A DNA stretch of 64,000 bases from assembly GCF_000959525.1 (NCBI RefSeq), contig NZ_CP009832.1:248001-312000 (forward strand). Direction: 5' to 3'. Made by a program: the position numbers and the translations under genes. Position 1 is the stretch's first letter, and each line of letters opens with the position of its first letter. The notes under the pieces are model-generated. The model was not told the origin of the DNA. It searched no databases and was given only the letters and a program-made list of their open reading frames with translations. Shown piece by piece: positions 44,126 to 59,990 of this stretch. Origin of the DNA: Burkholderia multivorans ATCC BAA-247. Lineage in GTDB: Bacteria > Pseudomonadota > Gammaproteobacteria > Burkholderiales > Burkholderiaceae.

Positions 44126-45703
44126 ATGCCGATGGCTACCACCCCGTCTTCCCCGATCGCCGGCGACATGCCGGCCGACTGGCAGCAGGCGCTGCTCGCG
44201 CGCCTGAACGCCTATTCTCCCGACGACCCCCATGCGCCGCTGCCATACAGCCGGCGGCTCGCCGACGCCGAAGGCTGGTCGCACGATCGCGCACTGGCTG
44301 TGATCGAGGAATACAAGCGCTTCGCGTTCCTCGCGCAGGCGGCCGGACATGCGGTCACGCCGTCGGTCGCGGTCGACGCCGCATGGCATCTCCATCTGCA
44401 ATACACGCGCGAATACTGGGAGGTGTTCTGTGCCGACGTATTGCAGGCGCCGCTGCATCACATGCCCGGCACAGGCGCGCCGGACGAGGCACGCGTGTAC
44501 GAGCAGCGCTATCGCGACACGCTCGACAGCTATCGTCGGCTGTTCGGCTGCGAGCCGCCGGAATCGATCTGGCCGCGTCCGGCGCGTTCGCGTGCGGACA
44601 CCGAATCGTCGCGCGCGGACGGCGGCTCGACCGCACGCGCGCCGGACGAGCGCGGGGCCGCGGCACCTGCGGCGCGGCGCAACTGGCGTAACCGTCTGCC
44701 CAAGCTGGCGTGGCCGGCAGCCGCCGCAAGTGTCGCGGCGACCTGCGCGTCGGCGCGGGACCTCAACGTGCTGAACTACACGGGGCCGCAGTTCCTCGCG
44801 TTCTATATCCCGGCCTGCATCGTCGCGCTGCTGCTGATCGTCGGCTTGCAGCAGGTCGAATACCGCTGCCGGCGCCGACGTGTATTCACGCGCGAAGCGG
44901 TGCCGGAGCTGAGCGCCGAGCAGCTCGCGTATATCGCCGGCGAAGAGACGCGCGTCGTGCAGGTGATGACGCTGTCGCTGATCCAGGCGGGCGCGATCGA
45001 TCTGAGGCGGGCCGGCCGGCTGGGCACGCGCGTGACGCTCGTCGATGCGGCGCGCGCCGGCGCCTACGCGGACGAGTGCGAATGGCTGGCCGCTCAGCCG
45101 GACGGCGAAGTGAGCTTCGGCGCGTTCCGCCAGCTCCTCGCGCGGCGCGCGGCGCAATACGCGGATGCCGTGCACCGGCGTGAATGGCTTTGGGCGCCGG
45201 GCGAGATGCGTGCGGCGCGGCTGGCGGCGCGCGCGATCGTATTGATCGTGCTGGGCACGGGCATCGCAAAGCTCGCGGTCGGACTCAGTCGCGGCCGGCC
45301 GGTGCTGCTGCTCGGCATCGGCATGGCCGCATTCGCGATCGCCTACGGCATCATCGCCGAGCGTCTGACGGGCTTCGGGCGCGGCGGCCTGTCGGTGGGC
45401 GGCCGGGCGACGCTCGACGCGCACCGCAACGATCGCCACGACGAACGCGGTACGCCGGACGATTTGCTGTGGGCCACCGCGCTGTTCGGTGCGGGCGCGC
45501 TGGCCGGCACTGCGTGGGCCATGCATGCGAGCGCGTTGATGGAGCCGCCGCCGCTGATGGCGGCCGCGATGCGCGCGGACGGAACGAGCGGGTCGTCGCC
45601 CAGCAGCCACGCAAGCGATTTCGGGCCGAGCTGCTCGTCGTCGAGTTCGTGCAGTTCCAGTTCCTGCGCGGCGAGTTGCGGCGGGTGTTCGTCGAACAGT
45701 TGA
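44126..45703 (+). CDS. TIGR04222-like membrane protein with N-terminal glycine-rich-protein-type domain
   Basis: 525 residues. The N-terminal ~150 residues carry the WHLHLQYTREYW-type block (AAWHLHLQYTREYWEVFCADVLQAPLHHMPGTG, YRDTLDSYRRLFG) of GRDP/DUF1399-like domains. The middle and C-terminal parts have three to four membrane helices (QFLAFYIPACIVALLLIVGL; RAIVLIVLGTGIAKLAVGL; VLLLGIGMAAFAIAYGII) around a TIGR04222-like cytosolic region (LSAEQLAYIAGEETRVVQVMTLSLIQAGAIDLR). It ends in a Ser/Cys-rich tail (CSSSSSCSSSSCAASCGGCSSNS) with six cysteines. Function unknown. Start could also be the ATG two codons later; no good ribosome site is visible. Confidence 0.7.
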   Translation: MPMATTPSSPIAGDMPADWQQALLARLNAYSPDDPHAPLPYSRRLADAEGWSHDRALAVIEEYKRFAFLAQAAGHAVTPSVAVDAAWHLHLQYTREYWEVFCADVLQAPLHHMPGTGAPDEARVYEQRYRDTLDSYRRLFGCEPPESIWPRPARSRADTESSRADGGSTARAPDERGAAAPAARRNWRNRLPKLAWPAAAASVAATCASARDLNVLNYTGPQFLAFYIPACIVALLLIVGLQQVEYRCRRRRVFTREAVPELSAEQLAYIAGEETRVVQVMTLSLIQAGAIDLRRAGRLGTRVTLVDAARAGAYADECEWLAAQPDGEVSFGAFRQLLARRAAQYADAVHRREWLWAPGEMRAARLAARAIVLIVLGTGIAKLAVGLSRGRPVLLLGIGMAAFAIAYGIIAERLTGFGRGGLSVGGRATLDAHRNDRHDERGTPDDLLWATALFGAGALAGTAWAMHASALMEPPPLMAAAMRADGTSGSSPSSHASDFGPSCSSSSSCSSSSCAASCGGCSSNS

Positions 45704-45925
45704 GTCGTTGGTGTAGGCGGTGGCGGCGTCCGATGAACCGTCGATGGTGGTGGCCGCTTGCCACCGCCAACCCACCAACCCGCCACCACACCCCATCCGC
45801 CGAACAACCACGCGGAACGGGCTCATCTCCTCGCATCGCCCGTACATCCGCTTCGGTAACCTGTCATCCGAAGCCGTCCGCGCTGAAACGAAATCGTCGC
45901 GCGCACGGCCCTTTGCCTGCCTCCG

Positions 45926-47869
45926 ATGATGACGCCCGTTTCCGCCGATTCCGCGCCCGTTCAACGTGCCGCGACCCTATGCCAGAACGGCCAGTTCGCT
46001 GCCGCGCTGTCGCTCGTCGCGCCGTTGCTCGACACGCCCGCGGCCGATGCCATGGCACTGCATGTCGCGGCCGTCTGCGCGCTCGGCCTGAACCGGCACG
46101 CGGATGCGGAGCACTGGTGGCGGCGTGCGATCGACACGATGCCGGCATTCGAGCCCCCTTACGATGGCCTCTGCGCCTTGCTCGTATCGCAGCAGCGATA
46201 CGCCGACGCGGCAGACGTGCTGCGCCGGCAACTCGAGTCGGTCGAGCCGCTGCGCGCGTCGCATCATCATCGGCTCGGCAAGCTGCTCGAAATGCTCGGC
46301 CGCTTCAGCGAGGCCGAACAGGCGTTCGGGCAGGCACTGCTGCTCGAGCCGCAGTCGGCGGAAGTGCTGAACGATCTCGGCAACGTGCTGCGTGTCGTCG
46401 GACGGCAGGCCGAGGCCGAACTCGCGTATCGGCTCGCGATCGCCGTGCGTTCGGATCACGCGCTCGCCCATGCGAATCTCGGCGCGATCCTCGTCGACAT
46501 GCAGCGCCTGCCCGAAGCGGAAGCCGCGAGCCGGCAAGCGCTCGCCCTGTGCCCCGATCATCCGGAGGCGCATTACAACCTCGGCGTCGCGCTGCAGAAT
46601 CTCGATCGTCTCGCCGAAGCGGAAGCAGCGTATCGCGATGCGATTCGCTGCCGCCCCGGCCTGGCACAGGCGCACAACAATCTCGGCTGCGTGCTGCGCG
46701 CGCAGGGACGCCACGACGAAGCGATGGCGGTCTTCGCCGACGCGCTCGCCCTTGCGCCGCAGATGGCCGAAGTGCACTACAACCTCGGCGCGACGTTCGC
46801 GCATGCCGGTCGCTTTGCGGATGCGGAGCGCGCATACCGCCGCGCGCTCGAACTGCGCGGCGACTATGCGGACGCGCAGTTCGGTCTCGCGACGCTGCTG
46901 CTCGGCCTCGGTCGGTTCGACGAAGGCTGGCGGCGCTATGAATCGCGCTACGCGCAGTCGACGTTCGTCCATCGGCGCACGCGCGAGATACTGCGATGCG
47001 CGCAGTGGCAGGGCGAGCCGCTCGCGGGCCGCACGCTGCTCGTGTGGCAGGAGGATGGCCTCGGCGACATGCTGCAGTTCAGCCGCTATTTCAGCGAGTT
47101 TCGTGCGCGGGGCGCGGCGCGTGTGGTATTCGCGTGTCAGCCGGCGCTGCATCGGCTCATGGAAACGGTCGACGGCATCGACGCGGTGCTCGATCACGAC
47201 GCGGCCATCGCGCGTTCGGCCGAATTCGATTACTGGACGAGCCCGCTCAGCGCGCCGCTGTATGCGGGGACGACGCTCGACACGATCCCGCCGCCGGTGC
47301 GGCTCGTGCCCGATCCCGAGCGCGTCGCGCGGTGGCGGGTGCGGCTGGACGCGCTGCCTGCCGGTCCGCGTGTCGGTCTCGTCTGGAAAGGCAACCCGAA
47401 GCATCACAACGACGCGCATCGTTCGCTGCCGTCGCTCGCGTTGCTGACGCCATTGTGGAGCGTGCCGGGCGTGCAATTCGTGAGCCTGCAGAAGGGGCAG
47501 GGCGAAGACGAGGCGCGCATGCCGCCGGGCGGCCTGCCGCTGCTGCATCTCGGTTCGGAGATCGGCGATTTCGCCGATACGGCGGCGATCGTCGCGCAAC
47601 TCGATCTCGTGGTCTGCGTCGACACGTCGATCGCGCATCTGGCGGCGTCGCTCGGCAAACCGTGCTGGGTCCTGTTGCCGAATCAGGACGTCGACTGGCG
47701 TTGGCTGCACGAGCGCGACGATTCGCCGTGGTATCCGGGCACGATGCGGCTGTTTCGACGCGGGCGCGAGGAAAGCTGGATCAGGGTGGCCGAGCGCTTG
47801 CGGGAGGCGTTTGCGGCGTATTTTGCGAACCATCGTACCGCGGCGAACGAGCCGGCCCGTGTCGGCTGA
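45926..47869 (+). CDS. TPR protein with GT9-like glycosyltransferase C-terminus
   Basis: 647 residues. Residues ~10-330 form about eight tetratricopeptide repeats (for example ALCPDHPEAHYNLGVALQNLDRLAEAEAAYRDAIRC, HNNLGCVLRAQGRHDEAMAVFADALALAP). Residues ~365-630 are a glycosyltransferase-B-like domain: LLVWQEDGLGDMLQFSRYFSEFRARG, VGLVWKGNPKHHNDAHRSL, LDLVVCVDTSIAHLAASLGKPCWVLLP. This TPR plus GT9-like combination is found near flagellar and surface-glycan loci. It is 96 bases upstream of the NeuD-like gene in the same direction, so both probably act in flagellin glycan synthesis. Start 45926 or the next ATG; both lack a strong ribosome site. Confidence 0.78.
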   Translation: MMTPVSADSAPVQRAATLCQNGQFAAALSLVAPLLDTPAADAMALHVAAVCALGLNRHADAEHWWRRAIDTMPAFEPPYDGLCALLVSQQRYADAADVLRRQLESVEPLRASHHHRLGKLLEMLGRFSEAEQAFGQALLLEPQSAEVLNDLGNVLRVVGRQAEAELAYRLAIAVRSDHALAHANLGAILVDMQRLPEAEAASRQALALCPDHPEAHYNLGVALQNLDRLAEAEAAYRDAIRCRPGLAQAHNNLGCVLRAQGRHDEAMAVFADALALAPQMAEVHYNLGATFAHAGRFADAERAYRRALELRGDYADAQFGLATLLLGLGRFDEGWRRYESRYAQSTFVHRRTREILRCAQWQGEPLAGRTLLVWQEDGLGDMLQFSRYFSEFRARGAARVVFACQPALHRLMETVDGIDAVLDHDAAIARSAEFDYWTSPLSAPLYAGTTLDTIPPPVRLVPDPERVARWRVRLDALPAGPRVGLVWKGNPKHHNDAHRSLPSLALLTPLWSVPGVQFVSLQKGQGEDEARMPPGGLPLLHLGSEIGDFADTAAIVAQLDLVVCVDTSIAHLAASLGKPCWVLLPNQDVDWRWLHERDDSPWYPGTMRLFRRGREESWIRVAERLREAFAAYFANHRTAANEPARVG

Positions 47870-47965
47870 CGACGCATTGCACGTAGCGTACCGCTTGGGC
47901 ACACCGTGCAAGACCGTGCGACGGCACTCATCGCATTTTTGTTTTTCCGTTCAATCGAGGCACGC

Positions 47966-48628
47966 GTGGACAACATCGTGATCGTGGGTTCGTCGGGGCA
48001 CGCCAAAGTCGTGATCGACATCGTCGAGCAGGCCGGTCGGTACCGGATTGCCGGCTTGATCGATTCGTTTCGATCGCGCGGCGAGCAGACGCTCGGTTAT
48101 CCGGTGCTCGGCGCCGAGCGCGACTTGCCGCAACTGGTCGACGCGCATCGGGTCACGGGCGTGCTGGTCGCCATCGGCGACAACCATGCGCGCGAGCAAG
48201 TGACGGCGACGCTCGCGTCGATCGTGCCGGATCTTCCGCACGTGACGGCCATTCATCCTGCCGCGCGGGTCGGCAAGGCTTCGACGATCGGCGCGGGTAC
48301 GGTCGTGATGGCGGGGGCTGTGATCAATCCGTGCTGTGCGATCGGCGCAGCGTGCATCGTCAACACGAATGCGTCGCTCGATCACGACGGTGTCATGGAC
48401 GACTTCTCGAGCCTCGCGCCGGGCGTCGTGACGGGCGGCAACTGCCGGATCGGACGCGGCGCGGCGATCGGCCTCGGCGCGATGCTGCGGCACCGGATCG
48501 CGGTGGGCGAGCACGCTGTCGTCGGCGCGGGCGCCGTGGTGTTACGCGACGTCGACCCGTACACGGTCGCATACGGGAATCCGGCGCGCCGGATTCGCGA
48601 ACGTGCGGCGGGCGAGCGCTATCTATGA
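47966..48628 (+). CDS. NeuD/PglD-type sugar O/N-acyltransferase
   Basis: 220 residues from a GTG start behind a GAGG site; an ATG 20 codons earlier is open but poorly conserved. The N-terminal Rossmann-like PglD domain begins NIVIVGSSGHAKVVIDIVEQAGRYRIAGLID. The rest is a left-handed beta-helix of hexapeptide repeats (VGKASTIGAGTVVMAGAVINPCCAIGAACIVNTNASLDHDGVMDDFSSLAPGVVTGGNCRIGRGAAIGLGAML). The histidine in SLDHD is the expected catalytic base. These enzymes acylate a UDP/dTDP-amino sugar. With the convergent DegT aminotransferase it forms the pair needed for an N-acylated 4-amino-4,6-dideoxysugar. Confidence 0.88.
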   Translation: MDNIVIVGSSGHAKVVIDIVEQAGRYRIAGLIDSFRSRGEQTLGYPVLGAERDLPQLVDAHRVTGVLVAIGDNHAREQVTATLASIVPDLPHVTAIHPAARVGKASTIGAGTVVMAGAVINPCCAIGAACIVNTNASLDHDGVMDDFSSLAPGVVTGGNCRIGRGAAIGLGAMLRHRIAVGEHAVVGAGAVVLRDVDPYTVAYGNPARRIRERAAGERYL

Positions 48629-48639
48629 ATGTCGCGGGC

Positions 48640-49782
48640 TCAGCCGGCGATCAGATCGACGATGCGGTGGACCATCGCATCGGTCAGCGCCGGATAGATC
48701 GGCAGGCATAGCACCTTGCGCGACGCCTCGGACGCGACGGGCAGGTTGTCGCGGTTCGCGGACGGCAAGCCGCGATACATCGGGAACTCCGAAATCAACG
48801 GATGGAAGTAGCGGCGCGCGTAGACGTCGTAGTCGCGCAGCTTGCGATAGAGCGCATCGCGGTCGAGCGGATATGCTTCGTCGACGAGGATCGCGAAATA
48901 CGCGTAGTTCGCGACCGCATGGTCGCCGCGCGGCAGGCAGCGAATCCCGCGCACGTCGCTCAGCAGCGTGCGGTACAGCGTGTCGATCTCGCGGCGGCGC
49001 GCAAGCGCGGCGTCGATGTGCTGCAGCTGCAGCATCCCGAACGCGGCGTTGATCTCGCTCATTTTCCCGTTGATGCCGGGCGCGACGACCGTGACTTCGT
49101 CGACGAACCCGAAATTCTTCAGATGGTCGATCCGCTGCTTGGTCTTCGCGTCGGGGCAGATGATCGCGCCGCCTTCGAACGTATTGAACACCTTCGTCGC
49201 ATGGAAGCTCAGCACCGACAAATCGCCGTGGGTCAGCACGCTGCCGGTGTCGGTGCGTACGCCGAACGCATGCGCGGCGTCGTAAATCACGCGCAGGTTG
49301 TAGTTGTCGGCGATCTTCTGAATTGCGTCGACGTCGCACGGATTGCCGTAGCAATGCACGGGCATGATCGCGGTGGTTTGCGGCGTGATGGCCGCCTCGA
49401 TGCGCGCCGGGTCGAGATTGAGCGTGCCGGGCGTCACGTCGACGAATACCGGCTTGATGCCGTTCCACAGCAGCGAATGCGCGGTCGCGACGAACGAATA
49501 AGGCGTCGTGATGACCTCGCCGTTGATGCGTAGCGCCTGCAGCGCGGTCACGAGCGCGAGCGTGCCGTTGGCGAACAGCGACAGATACGGAACGCCGAGA
49601 TACTCGCAGAGCGCGCGCTCGAACTGCTGGTGGAACGGGCCGCCGTTGGTGAGCGTCCTGCTTTCCCAGATCTTCTCGAGGTATGGCAGGAAGTCTTCGA
49701 GCGGCGGCAAGTGCGGTTGCGTGACGTAGATGCGTTCGTTCGGCAATTGCGCGACGGACGAGGCGGGCAGGCTGGCGGTCAT
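48640..49782 (-). CDS. DegT/DnrJ/EryC1/StrS sugar aminotransferase (VioA/FdtB-like)
   Basis: 380 residues, PLP-dependent. Features: IYVTQPHLPPLEDFLPYLEKIWESRTLTNGGPFHQQFERALCEYLG at the start, TTPYSFVATAHSLLWNGIKPVFVDV, MPVHCYGNPCDVDAI, VIYDAAHAFGV and the PLP lysine in LSFHATKVFNTFEGG (about residue 196). The family adds an amino group to nucleotide-linked 4-keto-6-deoxy sugars; VioA-type members make dTDP-Qui4N. It sits between the OGT-like gene and the NeuD-like gene beside fliC-fliD. In Burkholderia cenocepacia flagellin carries an acylated Qui4N, which fits. Rhamnose-pathway genes supplying the 4-keto sugar are not in the window. Confidence 0.87.
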   Translation of the reverse strand: MTASLPASSVAQLPNERIYVTQPHLPPLEDFLPYLEKIWESRTLTNGGPFHQQFERALCEYLGVPYLSLFANGTLALVTALQALRINGEVITTPYSFVATAHSLLWNGIKPVFVDVTPGTLNLDPARIEAAITPQTTAIMPVHCYGNPCDVDAIQKIADNYNLRVIYDAAHAFGVRTDTGSVLTHGDLSVLSFHATKVFNTFEGGAIICPDAKTKQRIDHLKNFGFVDEVTVVAPGINGKMSEINAAFGMLQLQHIDAALARRREIDTLYRTLLSDVRGIRCLPRGDHAVANYAYFAILVDEAYPLDRDALYRKLRDYDVYARRYFHPLISEFPMYRGLPSANRDNLPVASEASRKVLCLPIYPALTDAMVHRIVDLIAG

Positions 49783-49809
49783 GGCGGTCTCTCTCGAATG
49801 GCGCGGCGA

Positions 49810-52149
49810 TCAGGCGTCGACCGTATCGGGCACGGCGGCCGCATCGTCGAACAACGGCGTATCGAATGCTGTGGCGGGTTCGCCTGCGCACCAGCGCCGC
49901 CACATCGTGCGCAGCGCCGACGACAGGCCCGCCGCGACGACGGCTGGCCGGAACGCAGCCGACTGCGCGCAACGTGCGCGCAGACCCGTGCGCAGCACGT
50001 GCAGCGCGGCGGTGTCGCGGCCGAGCGCGACGGCCTTCGCGACGAAGTCGTCCTCGTCCTTCGCGATATATTCGTCGAGCCGGACATGCTGCAGCCAGCC
50101 GGCGCTACCGCGCCCGGCCACCGTCGAGCCGGGGATCGTCACGGTGGGAACGCCCATCCACAGCGCATTCAGCGTGGTCGTCGAACCGGTGTACGGAAAG
50201 GCATCGAGGCAAAGGTCCACGCCGTGATGCTGCTGCATGTAGACGGGGATGTTCGAGCGCGGATGGAACGTCAGACGGCTCGCGTCGATGCCGGCCGCGG
50301 CGAACCATTCGGTCAGCGTGCGCTGATCGCCGGCATTGCCGATCGCGCCGAGCGCCATGCGTGCCGTCGGGTCCGCATGCAGCACGCGCGCCCACACCGC
50401 GACGACTCGCGGGCTCAGCTTGTTCAGGCGGTTGAAGCTGCCGTACGTCGTATAGCCGTTGTGCAACGCGGGCAGCGCATTGACCGGCGGGCAGTGCGGC
50501 GGCGGCATGAACGGCGCGATCGCGGGCAGCCGCACGATCTGCTCGACGAATTGATCATCGAATACGCCGTGCGGCGCAACGAATCGATCGGTGAGGTAAT
50601 AGTCCATCGACGCGAGGCCGGTCGTCGCCGGATAGCCGATCCAGGACGCCTGCACCGGCGCCGCACGTTGCGCGAGCGCGACGAGCCGATTGCGTCCGGT
50701 GTGGCCCGACAGATCGATCGCGATGTCGATCCGGTCGCTGCGAACGCGCTCGAGGAACGCGTGATCGCTCATGCCGGCGACGTTGCGCCAGCCTGCCGCA
50801 CAGGCCTTGAAGCGTTCGGATGTCTGATCTTCTTCGACATGGTTGTGATAGAAGGGCATCGCGATGCCGGTGTCGGCGGCGAGATGTTCGATCACGGGAA
50901 CTGCGTAGGACGCCACCGCATGGTTGAACAGGTCGCCCGATACGAAGCCGACCCGAAGCCGGCGTGCCGGGTCGCGCGAATTCGAGAAAGCCGCCGCTCG
51001 CTTGCGCTTGCGATCTTCGTAGCGCTGGCCGAACTTGCGATGTTCGGCCACCAGCGCTTGCGGATCGAGATCGCTGCTGTGTGCAAGGCAGAACAGCATG
51101 CTGCTGTGCGTGACGCTGTCGGTCGGGTCGATTTCGATTGCACGGCGAAGCCAGCCGAGTGCTTCCTGGGTCGCACCGAGTTCGAGCAGCAGGAAGCCGA
51201 GCGTGCCGTTCGGTGCCGCGGCGTTGGGCGCGAGTTCGACCGCGCGCCGGCATGCGGCGATCGCTTCGTCTGCGCGACGCAGCGCGAACAGCACGAGGCC
51301 GTGGATGCGGAGCGCTTCCGCGTGATCCGGCCGCAATTCCAGCAGGCGTCGGCACGTGTCGTCGGCTTCCGCGAGGCGGTTCATCACGCGCAGCGTGTCG
51401 GCGAGCAGGATCCGCACGAGCACTTCGTCGGGCAGCAGCGCGATGGTGCGCAGACCGGCATCGATCATCTCGGCATAGCGGCCGCTCTTGTGCAGCGATG
51501 CGGACAGCGCGCGCCAGCACGCACCATCGTCCGGGTATTCCGCGACGAGCCGTTGTGCATGCGCGGTAGCTTCGTCGTGCTTGCCCTTCTCGAACAGTGC
51601 CGCATGCTTTTGCAGCTGATGCGCACTCGCGCGGCGAACCGCCCTGCCGGCGCCGTTCGGTGCGGCCGCTTCGGCGACAGTCTCGGCCACGATCGCCGCG
51701 CCGACGCCCGTGGGCGCAATCGCCGCAGCGGCCGTCGCGAGCCGCGCGTCCGGCATGGCCATCTGGGCGATCAGTCCGTCGAGCGCAGGACCGCGCACGC
51801 CGCGCTGCTGGGCGATCTCGACCGCAATCCAGGCGGCCGGCGTTTGTCCGCTGCGATGCAGTGCATGGATGTAGCTGACCCAGTAGTAGCCGTTCGCCGG
51901 ATTCGCGCCGAGCGCGGCTTCGAAATGCGGCAGCGCGTCGGCCGGCCGGCCCGTATCGACCAGCAGGACCGCGAGGTTGTAGCGGGCGTCCGCATGCGCG
52001 GGCATCGCATCGAGGATCGCTTCGTACAGCGCCTGCGCTTCGGCAAACGCGCCGCTGCGCTGGCGCTCGAGCGCGTTTTCCATGACGAGCGCAATATCCT
52101 GCGCGAGCTGCTGTTCGGGCGTGAGCGTGGCCGGGGCGGACGGGGGCAT
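49810..52149 (-). CDS. TPR-containing GT41 / O-GlcNAc-transferase-like glycosyltransferase
   Basis: 779 residues. Residues ~15-370 hold about nine TPR units (ALYEAILDAMPAHADARYNLAVLLVDTGRPADALPHFEAAL and following). Residues ~395-750 are the SPINDLY/OGT catalytic GT-B domain: RLRVGFVSGDLFNHAVASYAVPVIEHL, IDIAIDLSGHTGRNRLVALAQRAAPVQASWIGYPATTGLASMDYYLTDRF, YTTYGSFNRLNKLSPRVVAVWARVL, LTFHPRSNIPVYMQQHHGVDLCLDAFPYTGSTTTLNALWMGVPTVTIPG. The signature residues for nucleotide binding are present. Being next to fliT-fliD-fliC, it is the best candidate for O-glycosylating flagellin Ser/Thr in the cytoplasm. It starts beyond the fliT terminator, so it likely has its own promoter. Confidence 0.88.
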   Translation of the reverse strand: MPPSAPATLTPEQQLAQDIALVMENALERQRSGAFAEAQALYEAILDAMPAHADARYNLAVLLVDTGRPADALPHFEAALGANPANGYYWVSYIHALHRSGQTPAAWIAVEIAQQRGVRGPALDGLIAQMAMPDARLATAAAAIAPTGVGAAIVAETVAEAAAPNGAGRAVRRASAHQLQKHAALFEKGKHDEATAHAQRLVAEYPDDGACWRALSASLHKSGRYAEMIDAGLRTIALLPDEVLVRILLADTLRVMNRLAEADDTCRRLLELRPDHAEALRIHGLVLFALRRADEAIAACRRAVELAPNAAAPNGTLGFLLLELGATQEALGWLRRAIEIDPTDSVTHSSMLFCLAHSSDLDPQALVAEHRKFGQRYEDRKRKRAAAFSNSRDPARRLRVGFVSGDLFNHAVASYAVPVIEHLAADTGIAMPFYHNHVEEDQTSERFKACAAGWRNVAGMSDHAFLERVRSDRIDIAIDLSGHTGRNRLVALAQRAAPVQASWIGYPATTGLASMDYYLTDRFVAPHGVFDDQFVEQIVRLPAIAPFMPPPHCPPVNALPALHNGYTTYGSFNRLNKLSPRVVAVWARVLHADPTARMALGAIGNAGDQRTLTEWFAAAGIDASRLTFHPRSNIPVYMQQHHGVDLCLDAFPYTGSTTTLNALWMGVPTVTIPGSTVAGRGSAGWLQHVRLDEYIAKDEDDFVAKAVALGRDTAALHVLRTGLRARCAQSAAFRPAVVAAGLSSALRTMWRRWCAGEPATAFDTPLFDDAAAVPDTVDA

Positions 52150-52289
52150 GATCGAATCTGCGGAAAGTCGGTCCCTACGATTATGGGTAGCGGGCCGCCG
52201 CGCCGATGCCGCGAGGTGACGGTAAAAGCACGGTCAGTTTGGGCAATTGAGCGGCGAGCGGCGGCGCGGCGACACGGCGTGCGACACGC

Positions 52290-52315
52290 AAAAAAACGCC
52301 CGCGCGAGGCGGGCG
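52290..52315 (-). terminator. Rho-independent terminator after fliT
   Basis: On the minus strand a 7-bp stem CGCCCGC/GCGGGCG with a 5-base loop is followed by TTTTTTT. It lies 85 bases after the fliT stop and closes the fliC-fliD-fliT group before the GT41 gene. Confidence 0.85.
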
Positions 52316-52399
52316 GAGTCGAACGAGCGCGCCCTCACATCAGCGCGTTGTTCTTGTTGTCGGGTGGGCCGCACGGTCACGCGCGGCAGCCGGCGCGCG

Positions 52400-52699
52400 T
52401 CAGCGGCTGGCGATGTTCTGGTATTGGCCGGCGGCCTGCACGCGGCTCATCGCCGCCTGGTATTCGTCGGCGAGTTCCCGCTGTGCGCGCTGCGCATCGG
52501 CGAAGATGCGCTCGTTGCTGGCCTGCATGCGCCGGATCGCGGCGATGCCGGCGGGCGGCTGGTCGGCCGAGAGCGACAGGACGAGCGGCTCGCGCGCCGC
52601 GGCGAGGCGTACCGCCTCGGTCCAGTCGGCCATCGCGGCCGCGTGCTCGATTGCATCGGTGAGCGCGTCGAGCTGCGCGATCAGTTCGGTCTGTTCCAT
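52400..52699 (-). CDS. fliT: Flagellar export chaperone FliT
   Basis: 99 residues, almost all helical (MEQTELIAQLDALTDAIEHAAAMADWTEAVRLAAAREPLVLSLS...AAIRRMQASNERIFADAQRAQRELADEYQAAMSRV), the size and charge pattern of FliT. FliT holds the filament-cap protein FliD until export and can restrain FlhDC. It lies 25 bases downstream of fliD in the same direction. GGAGC-type spacing is present upstream. Sequence similarity in this family is low, so the call rests on size, helix pattern and position after fliD. Confidence 0.85.
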   Translation of the reverse strand: MEQTELIAQLDALTDAIEHAAAMADWTEAVRLAAAREPLVLSLSADQPPAGIAAIRRMQASNERIFADAQRAQRELADEYQAAMSRVQAAGQYQNIASR

Positions 52700-52724
52700 C
52701 GTGGCTCCCGGGTCCGGATCGCGC

Positions 52725-54233
52725 TCAGCTCTTGTTGCTCGACAGCGCGCCGGCGCTGTTCGTGCCGCCGAACAGCTGCGTCAGGTACTGCGAATTGTTG
52801 TTCATCGTCGCCATCAGCGTATTGAGCGCCGTGAACTGCGCCTGGTACTGGCTCGTCAGCTGCGCCGCATAGGTCGACAGCGCCGTCTGCTGCTGCGCGA
52901 CGCTCTTCAGGTCGTTGCTGAGCGCGGTCGTCCGCGCGGCGATCAGTCCGTTCGTCTTCGTGTAGTTCGTGATGCTGGTCGTCAGCTGCTCGCCGATACC
53001 GTTCGTCGAGTTGAACAGCGATGCGACGCCCGTCGGATTGTTCTGCAGCGCGCTATTGAGCGCCGTGCTGTCGACCTGCAGCGTGCCGTCGGCCTGCAGC
53101 GTGACGCCGATCGACGCGAGGTTCACGGTCGAGCCGTTGTTCGTGACGCCGCCGGCGACGATCGACGCCAATGCATTGCGGATCGTATTCAGCGTCGAGT
53201 CGCCCAGCAGCGGGCCCTGCGACGACGCGCCGGACGTGAAGCTCGACAGCGAGCCCATCGTCGTGACGAGCGTGTTGTAGAGCGTCGCGAAATTGCTGAT
53301 CGCGTTGGCCTGGCTCTTCGTATCGGCCGCGACGGTCAGCGTCATCGGCTGCGTCGCGCTGACGGCCGCGGCGGTCAGGTTCAGCGTGACGCCCGTGATT
53401 GCGCCCGTCACGGCATTGGTCGCGCTCGTGCCGGCAATCCCGTTGATCGTGAACGCGGCGTCCTGCGCGGCGGTACTTTGCTTCCACGCTGCGCTGCCGT
53501 TCGCGGACGTGACCGTCGACTGCCCGCCCGTCGTGCTGGCCGTCGACGTGACACCGAGGCTCGACAGCCCTTTGTCGTTGGCGACGTTGCTGAGCGAGAC
53601 GCTGATCGTGTTGGCCGCGCCCGTCGGCGTCGAGCTGAGCACGAGATGCGCGCCGTCGCTGCCGTTGACGACCGACGCGACGATGCCCGGGTTGCCGGTC
53701 GCGTTGTTGATCGCGGCGGCGATGCCGGACAGCGTGTTGTTCGCGCCGTTGACGTCGACGGTGAACGACTGGCTGCCCAGCGACAGCGTCATCGTGCCGG
53801 TGCCGAGCGCGGTCGACGCGCCGAATGCGGCCGAGGACAGCGACTGCGACGTCGCGATCTGCGTAACGCCGACCGAGTAGCTGCCCGCAACGGCGCCGGC
53901 GCCAGCGGTCGCGGTGAGGCCGGTGCCGCTTGCGGTGGCGGTGAAGGTGTTCTGCAGCGAGCCGTTCGACAGTGTCGTGAGGCCGGCCTGCAAGGCGCTC
54001 AGCGCGGCCGACAGGGCGCCGAACGCGGAAATCTGGGTGTTGTCGCTGGTCTGCTGCGCGGTGAGCGCGGCGGCCTGACCGGCGGTCTTCGCATTGACGA
54101 GCGCCGTCACGAGCGAGTTCACGTCCATCGACGAGTTGCCGGTCGAACCGCTGATGATCGATTGCGCAGCTTGCTGCAGCAGGCTGTTGGCCGAGTTGGT
54201 GGCGGAAGTGACGGCGGAGTTGATCGTCGACAT
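52725..54233 (-). CDS. fliD: Flagellar filament cap FliD (HAP2)
   Basis: 502 residues, Ser/Thr/Ala-rich and cysteine-free, the cap that folds flagellin at the filament tip. FliD_N is seen at ~30-130 (SSMDVNSLVTALVNAKTAGQAAALTAQQTSDNTQISAFGALSAALSALQAGLTTL). FliD_C runs through ~230-490 with the coiled-coil end GEQLTTSITNYTKTNGLIAARTTALSNDLKSVAQQQTALSTYAAQLTSQYQAQFTALNTLMATMNNNSQYLTQLF. The start MSTINSAV with GGAG seven bases upstream is preferred over an N-terminal extension from an earlier start. It lies downstream of fliC and a GC hairpin. Confidence 0.95.
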   Translation of the reverse strand: MSTINSAVTSATNSANSLLQQAAQSIISGSTGNSSMDVNSLVTALVNAKTAGQAAALTAQQTSDNTQISAFGALSAALSALQAGLTTLSNGSLQNTFTATASGTGLTATAGAGAVAGSYSVGVTQIATSQSLSSAAFGASTALGTGTMTLSLGSQSFTVDVNGANNTLSGIAAAINNATGNPGIVASVVNGSDGAHLVLSSTPTGAANTISVSLSNVANDKGLSSLGVTSTASTTGGQSTVTSANGSAAWKQSTAAQDAAFTINGIAGTSATNAVTGAITGVTLNLTAAAVSATQPMTLTVAADTKSQANAISNFATLYNTLVTTMGSLSSFTSGASSQGPLLGDSTLNTIRNALASIVAGGVTNNGSTVNLASIGVTLQADGTLQVDSTALNSALQNNPTGVASLFNSTNGIGEQLTTSITNYTKTNGLIAARTTALSNDLKSVAQQQTALSTYAAQLTSQYQAQFTALNTLMATMNNNSQYLTQLFGGTNSAGALSSNKS

Positions 54234-54320
54234 CGTAGTGCTCCGTGCGGCGGTGAATGCGTGAAATCGGTGAAGAAGGTCCGGCGGCGACAGGTGCGGT
54301 CGCACGCCGGATGCAGGCAG

Positions 54321-54346
54321 CCGGGCCGCGCATTGCGCGGGCCCGG
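54321..54346 (-). terminator. GC hairpin between fliC and fliD
   Basis: An 11-bp stem with one bulged base (CCGGGCCGCGC and GCGCGGGCCCGG around ATT) sits 19 bases after the fliC stop, without a following T-run. It may limit read-through from the very strongly expressed fliC into fliD. Confidence 0.5.
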
Positions 54347-54364
54347 CCGTCGGTTGCTACGCGA

Positions 54365-55522
54365 TTACTGCAGGAGCTTCAGGACCTGCTGCGGCAGCGA
54401 GTTCGCCTGTGCGAGCACCGAGATGCCGGCTTGCTGCAGCACCTGGTTCTTCGACATGTTCGCGGTTTCCTGCGCGAAGTTCGCGTCGGTGATCTGCGAC
54501 TGAGCGGACGACAGGTCGGTCGACTCGGCCTGCTGCGCGGTTGCGATCGCCGTGAAGCGGTTTTGTGCGGCGCCGAGCGCTGCCTGCAGGTTGTTCACCG
54601 TTTGCAGTGCGTTGTCGATCGAGACCATCGCGACGTTCGCGCCGCTGACCGTGCTGATGTCGAGGTTCGACACGGTCGCCGGCTTGTTGACGGCGTTGAT
54701 TTGCGCAACGGCATTCGAGATCGCCGTGAGCGAAGCTTGCGACATGCTCGCGTTCGTCGCGCCTGCGCTGATCGAGATTTGCTCGACCGTTGCGCCGTTC
54801 GATGCTGCGGCGGTGGACGTCGCGAAGATCGCCGCTGCCGTTGCGCCGGTGATCGCCGTGCCGTTCTGGTCGGTGAACGTGAAGCCGCCCTTGCCGTCGG
54901 ACAGCACGTTGACTGCCGTGATGACCGCACCCGACGACGTGTATGCGCCGCTCGAGTCGAGGCTCAGACCCGTGACCGTGCCGACCGTCTGGCCTGCCTG
55001 CACAAGGCCGCCGCCGATTTGTGCTGCCGACATGCTCTGGCTCAGATCCAGCGAGATCGTCTGACCGACGTTCGCGCCGACCTGGAACGACACGATGCCG
55101 GCGTTGCCGTTCAGGATGTTCGTGCCGTTGTACGTCGTTTGCGACGCGATACGGTTCACTTCCTGAATCTGTTGCGCGACTTCCTGTTGCAGCGCGGCCT
55201 GGTCGGTCGACGACATCGTGCCCGTCGATGCCTGCACGGCCAGCTGGCGGATACGCTGCAGGCTGTTCGTCAGCGACGACAGCGCGCTCGATGCGGTCTG
55301 GATCATCGACACGCCATCGTTTGCGTTCGACACGCCCTGATTCAGGCCGTTGATCTGCGTTTGCATCCGCGTCGAGATCGCGAGACCCGCTGCGTCGTCC
55401 GCTGCGCTGTTGATGCGCTTGCCCGACGACAGACGCGTGATCGCTTGCGACAGCGCGTTCTGCGAACCGTTCAGGTTCTGCTGTGCGACCAGCGAGTTGA
55501 TGTTGCTATTGATTCCGAGCAT
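54365..55522 (-). CDS. fliC: Flagellin FliC
   Basis: 385 residues. The D0/D1 N-terminus (MLGINSNINSLVAQQNLNGSQNALSQAITRLSSGKRINSAADDAAGLAISTRMQTQINGLNQG) and C-terminus (NLDISTVSGANVAMVSIDNALQTVNNLQAALGAAQNRFTAIATA...NMSKNQVLQQAGISVLAQANSLPQQVLKLLQ) are canonical and flank a variable D2 region at ~170-300 rich in Ser/Thr (possible glycosylation sites). AGGAG lies upstream of the ATG. Secreted by the flagellar type III apparatus. It is transcribed from a sigma-28-type promoter ~90 bases upstream. Codon usage is strongly biased, as expected for an abundant protein. Confidence 0.97.
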   Translation of the reverse strand: MLGINSNINSLVAQQNLNGSQNALSQAITRLSSGKRINSAADDAAGLAISTRMQTQINGLNQGVSNANDGVSMIQTASSALSSLTNSLQRIRQLAVQASTGTMSSTDQAALQQEVAQQIQEVNRIASQTTYNGTNILNGNAGIVSFQVGANVGQTISLDLSQSMSAAQIGGGLVQAGQTVGTVTGLSLDSSGAYTSSGAVITAVNVLSDGKGGFTFTDQNGTAITGATAAAIFATSTAAASNGATVEQISISAGATNASMSQASLTAISNAVAQINAVNKPATVSNLDISTVSGANVAMVSIDNALQTVNNLQAALGAAQNRFTAIATAQQAESTDLSSAQSQITDANFAQETANMSKNQVLQQAGISVLAQANSLPQQVLKLLQ

Positions 55523-56032
55523 GGAAAAATCTCCTGTTAAGCCGAAAGCCTTGGAAAGCCGTTTTGGCGTCGGCGGAAGCACTCGTTCATTGCTGGCCGC
55601 CTCAGAGCAGGATTTCGGCGGCACAAAACAAAACTTGAGGGGATCGAGGAGATTCGGCCCGATTTTTATGTCGAGGGGTCGGATTGCTGTGCCGCGATGG
55701 CGGTCGGACGTTGAGCGCGCCGTGGCGTGAGCCCTTTCGTCGCTCGCCCACGCGCGGACGACAAAAGGGTGGTTTTGTCTGTGATTCCCTGCTATGATGG
55801 CGGGCTGAATTGAGATTTCTGTCACGCCTTTGCCGTTTTCGGCATGTCTGCTGGCAGTCAAACGCGGCGCTGCACGCGGCTTGTGAAGCGTACTCGCGGT
55901 GCTTTCCGCCTCTCTTTTCCGGCCTCCGAGGCCGTATTTCCGCTCGTTTCGCCTGTTGTGGGAACGCCCGGATGGCCGGTGCGTGGCGCTTGGCCGCTAC
56001 GTTTTTGACCGTTTAAGCAATTTAGGAACGAC
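55523..56032. other. 510-bp divergent intergenic region fliC / rpsU
   Basis: The left part holds the fliC leader and its sigma-28 promoter. The right part has an extended -10 (TGCTATGAT, TATGAT at 55793-55798) likely serving rpsU, giving a ~230-base leader. No protein gene is supported; small open frames here lack ribosome sites. Confidence 0.6.
55612..55638 (-). promoter_or_regulatory. Sigma-28 (FliA) promoter of fliC
   Basis: On the minus strand TCAAGTTT (55638-55631), an exact 11-base spacer and GCCGAAAT (55619-55612) match the flagellar class III consensus TAAAGTTT-N11-GCCGATAA with two differences in the -10 part. It is 90 bases upstream of the fliC start. Confidence 0.85.

Positions 56033-59511: not shown

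Positions 59512-59990
<479 letters not shown>

What the first reader, a model, noticed from the sequence alone, without database searches (positions are those of the whole stretch)
45926..55638. Compact flagellin-glycosylation locus built around a eukaryote-like O-GlcNAc-transferase (GT41) protein
fliC, fliD and fliT share the neighbourhood with four glycan genes: TPR-GT41, DegT aminotransferase, NeuD-like acyltransferase and TPR-GT9-like. DegT plus NeuD-like would make an N-acylated amino sugar on a nucleotide, and a cytosolic GT41 could attach it to flagellin Ser/Thr before export. Known: B. cenocepacia flagellin carries an acylated Qui4N. Inference: which TPR glycosyltransferase does the transfer, and whether two transferases mean two sugars or a chain.
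Basis: partly seen in the sequence, partly recalled or inferred. Interest (0 to 1): 0.75.

Follow-up and report, generated by a model that had tools for sequence, protein, structure and literature searches.

The report
Flagellin sugar-coating locus, Burkholderia variant
Next to its flagellin gene this Burkholderia carries enzymes that very probably build an acylated amino sugar and glue it onto the flagellum protein; the system is already known from a sister species, but here the acylating gene sits in the flagellin locus itself, inside a stretch that related bacteria appear to swap for other sugar-tailoring genes.

Summary
At 45926-55638 lie fliC, fliD, fliT, a TPR-GT41 protein, a VioA-type DegT aminotransferase, a NeuD-type acyltransferase and a TPR-GT9-like protein. 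Best reading: VioA and NeuD make dTDP-N-acyl-Qui4N (4-amino-4,6-dideoxyglucose) and the GT41 puts it on flagellin in the cytosol. This is the known B. cenocepacia system (BCAL0111 near fliC BCAL0114), so the core is not new.

Added by comparison: (1) the GT41 ranks nearest plant SPINDLY, ahead of human OGT; (2) GT41 and VioA are a fixed pair (24 of 24 genus genomes with this GT41, 0 of 37 others; 67 of 80 named loci); (3) what follows VioA varies: NeuD, a 3-hydroxyacyl set as in the Pseudomonas syringae viosamine island, WbqC sets, or nothing; (4) two Burkholderia have a divergent GT41 and VioA between near-normal flagellar genes and TPR-GT9, so the block looks exchangeable; (5) here the only close VioA and NeuD relatives in the genome are in this locus, whereas the best NeuD-like hit of a B. 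cenocepacia genome lies in its rml/O-antigen cluster.

TPR-GT9 behaves as a conserved flank, so two transferases need not mean two sugars. No function was tested; acyl group and number of sites are unknown.

The parts
54365..55522 (-). fliC, flagellin (385 aa), the proposed acceptor
   Evidence: Pfam Flagellin_N, FliC_D2, Flagellin_C; NCBIfam flagellin PRK08869.1-5, 664 bits; one match in the own genome; 34 Ser/Thr in residues 170-300, 16 of them Ser or Thr in all 14 sequences aligned
55612..55638 (-). sigma-28-like promoter of fliC
   Evidence: 3 mismatches to a recalled FliA consensus, 0.01 expected by chance in the window
52725..54233 (-). fliD, filament cap (502 aa)
   Evidence: Pfam FliD_N and FliD_C; frame checked
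52400..52699 (-). fliT, flagellar chaperone (99 aa)
   Evidence: Pfam FliT 30.0 bits, cut-off 29.5
52297..52315 (-). terminator after fliT (7-bp G+C stem, then a T run)
   Evidence: stem and T run present in 14 of 14 aligned sequences
52150..52260 (-). conserved stretch upstream of the GT41, likely promoter region
   Evidence: conserved in 12 of the 14 aligned sequences, diverged in L143 and L144 (by eye); no sigma-70 consensus match; a promoter fusion of BCAL0111 is reported in PMC2753556 (passage)
49810..52149 (-). TPR-GT41 protein (779 aa), SPINDLY-like, proposed flagellin O-glycosyltransferase; BCAL0111 type
   Evidence: Pfam Glyco_transf_41; best solved relative SPINDLY; H410 and K577 invariant in 13 sequences, window included
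48640..49782 (-). VioA-type DegT aminotransferase (380 aa)
   Evidence: Pfam DegT; best solved relative 2po3, listed as '4-dehydrase' and recalled as DesI; 76% relative in B. glumae annotated VioA; Lys197 in SFHATK
47966..48628 (+). NeuD/PglD/VioB-type N-acyltransferase (start 47966 GTG or 47906 GTG)
   Evidence: NCBIfam NeuD_NnaD above cut-off; matches solved 4m98 (pilin glycosylation protein), perosamine N-acetyltransferase and VioB; LDHD motif
45926..47869 (+). TPR-GT9-like protein (647 aa); conserved flank, role not known
   Evidence: weak Pfam Glyco_transf_9; model pLDDT 88; at 78% or more in 16 of 61 genomes, also where the sugar genes differ

Best explanation
A flagellin O-glycosylation module of the BCAL0111 type. 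Rml enzymes encoded elsewhere in the genome give dTDP-4-keto-6-deoxyglucose; the DegT protein (VioA) aminates C4 to dTDP-Qui4N; the NeuD-type enzyme N-acylates it (acetyl or 3-hydroxybutanoyl, undecided); the SPINDLY-like GT41 holds flagellin with its TPR superhelix and transfers the sugar to one or more surface Ser/Thr in the cytosol before export. GT41 and VioA are the fixed core; the genes after VioA are exchangeable tailoring genes. The TPR-GT9 protein is a conserved neighbour that is not needed for this sugar. Shown here: gene content, order, conservation, two rml sets elsewhere, conserved residues. Inferred: every enzymatic step, the sugar, and flagellin as substrate in this strain.
For: Open frames and families. 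GT41 at E 4e-198 or better in 24 of 61 genus genomes, and VioA at 66% or more in exactly those 24 and none of the other 37; fliC close by in 23 of 24. Of 80 named loci fetched by the GT41 alone, 67 have VioA directly downstream, 59 have fliC in the stretch, 51 both. Own genome: the next best VioA hit is 32% and the next best NeuD hit 25% identical; rmlB twice, in rml sets without VioA or NeuD hits in the 20-kb stretches. B. glumae has the same core followed by KAS III, ACP, SDR and a NeuD relative, gene kinds of the P. syringae viosamine island, which gives N-(3-hydroxybutanoyl)viosamine on flagellin (PMC3927599, passages). In L152 the GT41 is 46% but VioA 90% and NeuD 84% identical to the window, so VioA and NeuD move together. 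B. cenocepacia flagellin carries Qui4N(3-OHBut) (PMC12355684, passages); tags BCAL0111 and BCAL0114 (FliC) are named in PMC3502180 and PMC2753556 (passages), and I match BCAL0111 to the GT41 by its annotation and the gene order. Recalled, not read: the abstract of Hanuszkiewicz 2014, naming a glycosyltransferase linked to the flagellin cluster and an acetyltransferase in the O-antigen cluster as required; the paper is not held.
Against: No function was tested in this strain. In 21 of 80 named loci no fliC lies in the fetched stretch, and 13 of 80 have no VioA within 400 bases downstream (some of these are cut by my segment rule or by contig ends), so the GT41 clade may have other substrates. 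Gene linkage is inherited among relatives. T. terrenum OGT (5djs) is nearly as close to the GT41 as SPINDLY is (274 against 297 bits). The GT41 model is only moderate (pLDDT 69). NCBIfam's DesI model scores the DegT far below its cut-off (306 against 650). B. cenocepacia NCTC13227 has no NeuD at this locus, so a local NeuD is not a general need. Sources differ on the number of sites: two held papers speak of a single site for Burkholderia (PMC3958885; PMC7591256; passages), one calls B. cenocepacia flagellin highly glycosylated, and I recall at least 10 sites from the 2014 abstract. Other Burkholderia flagellins carry other glycans (291, 300 or 342 Da; PMC3958885).
Confidence: 0.8

Rival explanations
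1. The TPR-GT9 protein is a second flagellin transferase, so that flagellin carries a second sugar or a chain.
For: It is a TPR plus alpha/beta protein, lies 36 or 96 bases before neuD on the same strand, depending on the neuD start, and all 16 genomes with it at 78% or more also have the GT41.
Against: It stays at 84-85% to the window where the GT41 falls to 58-60% (G035, G046) and at 82% where NeuD is absent or replaced (G003, G049); 8 of the 24 GT41 genomes lack it at 78% or more, among them G015 (L152), which has VioA and NeuD; B. cenocepacia keeps it (82%) although one sugar is listed for its flagellin.
Confidence: 0.15
2. The GT41 is a true OGT analogue that attaches GlcNAc from UDP-GlcNAc; VioA and NeuD serve another glycan such as LPS.
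For: BCAL0111 is annotated 'O-linked N-acetylglucosamine transferase' (PMC3502180); the bacterial relative 5djs, titled an O-GlcNAc transferase, is the second-best relative by sequence (274 bits).
Against: VioA is directly downstream in 67 of 80 named loci and co-occurs in 24 of 24; SPINDLY, recalled as an O-fucosyltransferase, ranks first and well above human OGT (297 against 199 bits); B. cenocepacia flagellin is listed with Qui4N, not GlcNAc.
Confidence: 0.07
3. The module glycosylates another protein or several proteins, flagellin being incidental.
For: 21 of 80 named loci show no fliC in the fetched stretch.
Against: fliC is close by in 23 of 24 genus genomes; the B. cenocepacia precedent.
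Confidence: 0.06

Closest known systems
Burkholderia cenocepacia flagellin glycosylation system (BCAL0111 GT41, fliC BCAL0114; Hanuszkiewicz 2014, abstract recalled, paper not held)
   Same: Same order fliC-fliD-fliT-GT41-VioA and TPR-GT9 in B. cenocepacia NCTC13227 (GT41 80%, VioA 91%, TPR-GT9 82% identity; L052/L142); expected sugar Qui4N-acyl
   Different: The window has NeuD between VioA and TPR-GT9; NCTC13227 has none there, and its best NeuD-like hit, with a 49% VioA-like gene, lies in its rml/O-antigen cluster (L166)
Pseudomonas syringae viosamine island (vioA, vioM, vioT, vioS, vioB, vioR, acp)
   Same: VioA plus an acyltransferase; the cassette of B. glumae and others (KAS III, ACP, SDR, NeuD) has gene kinds of that island
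   Different: There a trisaccharide ending in modified viosamine, Fgt1 putting rhamnose on Ser and VioT adding the last sugar (PMC3927599, passages); here no such chain is foreseen, and the GT41 would attach the sugar directly
Caulobacter FlmG, TPR-glycosyltransferase for flagellins
   Same: TPR part plus GT-B part; FlmG's TPR part binds flagellin (PMC7591256, passages)
   Different: FlmG attaches pseudaminic acid; sequence relation not tested here
Arabidopsis SPINDLY (GT41)
   Same: Best solved-structure match by sequence and fold
   Different: Recalled as a plant protein O-fucosyltransferase using GDP-fucose
GT41 genes in flagellin glycosylation islands of Enterobacteriaceae (PMC4875605, passages)
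   Same: SPINDLY-type GT41 in islands by the flagellin genes, with DegT and NeuD genes in several types
   Different: Most there also carry methyltransferase domains; the passages seen describe no fixed GT41-VioA pair

Membership tests
BCAL0111-type flagellin glycosylation | GT41 gene linked to fliC-fliD-fliT, VioA next to it | tested here: met
BCAL0111-type flagellin glycosylation | flagellin carries Qui4N(3-hydroxybutanoyl) | not testable with these tools
   needs mass spectrometry
BCAL0111-type flagellin glycosylation | acyltransferase in the O-antigen cluster (recalled; a feature of B. cenocepacia rather than of the kind) | tested here: not met
   NeuD lies in the flagellin locus; no VioA or NeuD hit (E 1e-5) in the 20-kb stretches around the two rml sets; next best NeuD hit in the genome 25%
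GT41 | Pfam Glyco_transf_41 over its cut-off | tested here: met
   145.5 bits, cut-off 25
GT41 | catalytic His and Lys (human OGT H558, K842; numbers recalled) | tested here: met
   aligned to H410 and K577, invariant in 13 sequences
O-GlcNAc transferase (OGT) proper | nearest to an OGT by sequence and fold | tested here: not met
   SPINDLY ranks first; T. terrenum OGT 5djs is a close second by sequence (274 against 297 bits), human OGT 199. UDP-GlcNAc use itself could not be tested
VioA (dTDP-Qui4N aminotransferase) | DegT family with PLP lysine (motif recalled) | tested here: met
   341.7 bits; Lys197 in SFHATK
VioA (dTDP-Qui4N aminotransferase) | curated 4-aminotransferase model reached | tested here: inconclusive
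   NCBIfam PLP_DesI 306 bits, cut-off 650; a 76% relative is annotated VioA
NeuD/PglD/VioB acyltransferase | curated family model and catalytic His (motif recalled) | tested here: met
   202.8 bits, cut-off 160.8; LDHD motif
GT9 (TPR-GT9 protein) | Pfam Glyco_transf_9 over the domain | tested here: inconclusive
   23.7 bits, cut-off 22, best stretch 31 residues; fold matches led by the TPR part
P. syringae viosamine island | vioA, vioS, acp, vioR, vioB, vioT together | tested here: not met
   between fliT and TPR-GT9 only the GT41, VioA and a NeuD-type gene

The most novel reading that the evidence does not exclude
SPINDLY-like GT41 proteins paired with VioA form a widespread family of protein O-viosaminyl-transferases in betaproteobacteria and some others. 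Their tailoring genes are swapped like serotype cassettes between a fixed flagellar side and a fixed flank, so the transferase accepts differently acylated Qui4N sugars and diversifies the flagellar surface.
Probability: 0.45. Interest if true: 0.6.

Novelty: new variant of a known kind. Interest (0 to 1): 0.42.

Why it matters
If true, the known Burkholderia flagellin sugar is one of several, and gene content alone predicts which species carry which tailoring, and that one enzyme class tolerates several donors. It also puts a eukaryote-like GT41 next to its probable donor pathway, which makes donor choice in the SPINDLY/OGT family testable with bacterial proteins. Flagellin glycosylation is reported to affect TLR5 recognition in B. 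cenocepacia (PMC12355684, passage), so knowing the variants helps in reading strain differences.

Tried and rejected
Tried without gain: sigma-70 scan of 45700-56000 (0 sites, 1.2 expected; its 6 terminator-like sites are no more than the 7.6 expected, so the fliT terminator rests on its presence in 14 of 14 aligned sequences); phmmer of the GT9-like part against PDB (2 hits, E 0.32 and 0.86); fold search with the TPR-GT9 model (led by TPR matches, GT part hardly tested; no GT9 entry among the 50 rows shown in each, which is no proof of absence); paper searches for flagellin, tetratricopeptide, glycosyltransferase and glycosyltransferase family 9 (0 papers), for flagellin, WbqC and glycosylation (0 papers), for WbqC alone (12 papers, none opened, mostly unrelated by title). 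Plasmid search: 116 records, all under 60% identity; it gave the B. glumae record.

Considered and rejected: OGT proper; TPR-GT9 as a needed part; the locus as an LPS locus.

Error of mine, corrected: the fliD query was out of frame; the fliD figures there are void and those replace them. The cassette classes come from tblastn with score limits that I chose and a 7-kb reach; some stretches end earlier at a contig end; the antiparallel NeuD class includes L063 at 63%; the WbqC class includes loci where WbqC is not the gene next to VioA or is antiparallel (L055, L144). VioA 'directly downstream' means within 400 bases of the best GT41 segment, so a locus such as L106 (VioA 519 bases from the segment end) is counted as a miss. 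The extended genus set holds 22 of the 23 other GT41 genomes; G045 (a fragment) was left out. In one search, 21 intergenic stretches were taken and 13 plus the window aligned; the 8 from L145-L152 were left out as too distant, and L136 gave none. In one search fourteen loci plus the window were compared; the eight others were left out.
Full report
What is there. The window lies in a genome of 6.32 Mb in 3 contigs. The relatives of its GT41 in named genomes are Burkholderia, nearest B. cepacia LK29 (86%) and Burkholderia sp. BCC0506 (85%). The species was not determined. On the minus strand run fliC, fliD, fliT, then a terminator, then the GT41 and a DegT gene 27 bases apart; on the plus strand TPR-GT9 and neuD point towards them, with 11 bases between the neuD and DegT stops. 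On the fliC side a methyladenine glycosylase and a BadF-type ATPase gene recur beside fliC in B. glumae.

The GT41. It has Pfam GT41 (145.5 bits). By sequence its best solved relative is Arabidopsis SPINDLY (297 bits), followed by the T. terrenum protein 5djs (274; titled an O-GlcNAc transferase), human OGT (199) and Xanthomonas OGT (149). Foldseek puts SPINDLY first, E 4e-34 (model pLDDT 69). The His and Lys that line up with the catalytic residues of OGT (recalled numbers H558, K842; alignment) are H410 and K577, invariant in 13 sequences: the window and 12 relatives of 46-86% identity. The N-terminal TPR block, residues 1-130, has 22 invariant positions of 130, the second block, 179-350, 17 of 172, the linker between them 0 of 48. 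More distant GT41 relatives in the genus (34-40% identity, rows with E below 1e-70) align only from residue 137 or later. I infer that the N-terminal block holds flagellin, as the TPR part of FlmG does (PMC7591256, passages).

The sugar genes. DegT: best solved match 2po3 (240 bits; next 165), which I recall as the 4-aminotransferase DesI; a relative of 76% in B. glumae is annotated VioA. NeuD: best solved matches are 4m98 (a Neisseria pilin glycosylation protein, as I recall), perosamine N-acetyltransferase and VioB. In the own genome the next best VioA hit is 32% and the next best NeuD hit 25% identical. rmlB occurs twice over the family cut-off, each time in what I read from the gene starts as an rmlBACD set; this would supply the precursor.

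Linkage. In 61 genus genomes, drawn evenly from a larger group, the GT41 is found at E 4e-198 or better in 24 (next best E 2e-102), VioA at 66% or more in exactly these 24 (next best 49%), NeuD at 84% or more in 12 (next best 40%), TPR-GT9 at 78% or more in 16, all of them among the 24. fliC is close to the GT41 in 23 of 24 (exception G008, about 89 kb). About 23 further genomes have arrays of shorter GT41 relatives and another DegT gene near a flagellin that matches the window's only at its two ends (my reading of the lists, not computed). In 80 named loci fetched by the GT41 alone (the best 80 of 252), VioA is directly downstream in 67, fliC lies in the stretch in 59, both in 51. The pair reaches Ferrigenium and other Gallionellales, Sulfuritalea, Thiobacillus, Variovorax and Methylobacter records.

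Exchangeable tailoring genes. After VioA, the 67 named loci have NeuD (18: 9 antiparallel, 9 codirectional), a KAS III-ACP-KAS III-SDR-NeuD-Rieske set (5, one of them cut off by the contig end), WbqC sets (27) or other/none (17); the 22 genus loci beside the window have NeuD (11), WbqC (7), the KAS set (3), none (1, B. cenocepacia NCTC13227) (families of the WbqC sets). In L152 the GT41 is 46% but VioA 90% and NeuD 84% identical to the window: these two travel together. In G035 and G046 the median identities to the close loci (11 with the window) are normal for fliC (87.5, 86.5), fliD (91.8, 91.8), fliT (85.9, 86.5) and TPR-GT9 (87.5, 88.0), but low for GT41 (60.2, 58.6) and lower for VioA (65.7, 79.9). 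The 11 close loci and G049 have 80-89 for GT41 and 85-97 for VioA; G009, divergent throughout, has fliC 69, GT41 47, VioA 80, TPR-GT9 79. The fliT terminator is present in all 14 aligned sequences, and in G035 and G046 the sequence after it diverges (by eye). So the stretch between the fliT terminator and the TPR-GT9 gene looks like an exchangeable block. No formal recombination test was made.

TPR-GT9. It is 85, 84, 82 and 82% identical to the window's in G035, G046, G049 and G003, where the block differs, 78-79% in G009, and missing at 78% or more from 8 of the 24 GT41 genomes, G015 (L152) among them; G055 has a 71% relative on another contig, G057 and G051 have 60-62% relatives elsewhere. 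I read it as the conserved flank. Its own role is open.

What is known. B. cenocepacia flagellin is listed with Qui4N(3-OHBut) (PMC12355684, passages, citing Hanuszkiewicz 2014, which is not held). Its abstract, as I recall it, names a single sugar at ten or more sites, a glycosyltransferase linked to the flagellin cluster, an acetyltransferase in the O-antigen cluster, and rmlB. Against this, passages in PMC3958885 and PMC7591256 speak of a single site for Burkholderia, the second citing the 2014 paper too; PMC12355684 says highly glycosylated. I therefore leave the number of sites open. PMC3958885 also reports other glycan masses in two other Burkholderia species (291, 300, 342 Da). In line with the recalled abstract, B. 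cenocepacia NCTC13227 has no NeuD at the flagellin locus, and its best NeuD-like hit (29-34%) lies in a cluster with rmlBACD, ABC-transporter and glycosyltransferase-like genes that I take for the O-antigen cluster. BCAL0111 lies three tags from fliC BCAL0114 and responds to quorum-sensing mutations, one figure being a promoter fusion (PMC2753556, passages; PMC3502180, passage). The P. syringae viosamine island makes the related N-(3-hydroxybutanoyl)-2-O-methylviosamine (PMC3927599, passages).

The acyl group. The window has no KAS, ACP or reductase gene between fliT and TPR-GT9, which speaks for an acyl-CoA donor such as acetyl-CoA; but the NCTC13227 stretch shows no hit to those genes either, while B. 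cenocepacia is listed with 3-hydroxybutanoyl. I leave it undecided.

Verdict. The finding is real and mostly well read, but the core is a known system. The new parts are the local NeuD, the fixed GT41-VioA pair with variable tailoring genes, and the doubt about TPR-GT9. My searches for print on these points were in an open-licence library only; subscription papers may already say some of it.

Noticed in passing
unnamed genus genomes such as G020 (L157), G007, G010: About 23 of 61 genus genomes carry arrays of shorter GT41 relatives (34-40%) with another DegT gene near a flagellin of another type: an alternative, larger flagellin-glycosylation locus (read).
   Followed up: partly
G008 (L136): GT41-VioA-NeuD-TPR-GT9 lies about 89 kb from fliC, the only such case of 24; a rearrangement seems to have parted them.
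   Followed up: no
L167 and L168 (own genome C3, about 860 kb and 942 kb): Two rmlBACD sets that look nearly alike in the gene starts printed; no ABC-transporter gene was seen beside the first.
   Followed up: no
44126-45703: Protein of 525 aa without a Pfam match and with a Cys/Ser-rich tail, upstream of TPR-GT9 on the same strand.
   Followed up: no
about 59550-59930: Low-complexity repeat-like stretch between a BadF-type ATPase gene and a HAD hydrolase gene, giving repetitive translations in several frames.
   Followed up: no
L130, 16778-17877: In the B. glumae record a stretch without a listed gene holds pieces that look like a second KAS III gene in two frames; several other loci show a second KAS III match as one segment there. 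Described only.
   Followed up: no
L147, 9743-10711: A 323-aa protein in the WbqC sets has no Pfam match and recurs in many loci.
   Followed up: no
G039, C2:190603-192513: The TPR-GT9 match in this genome is listed with one TGA inside.
   Followed up: no
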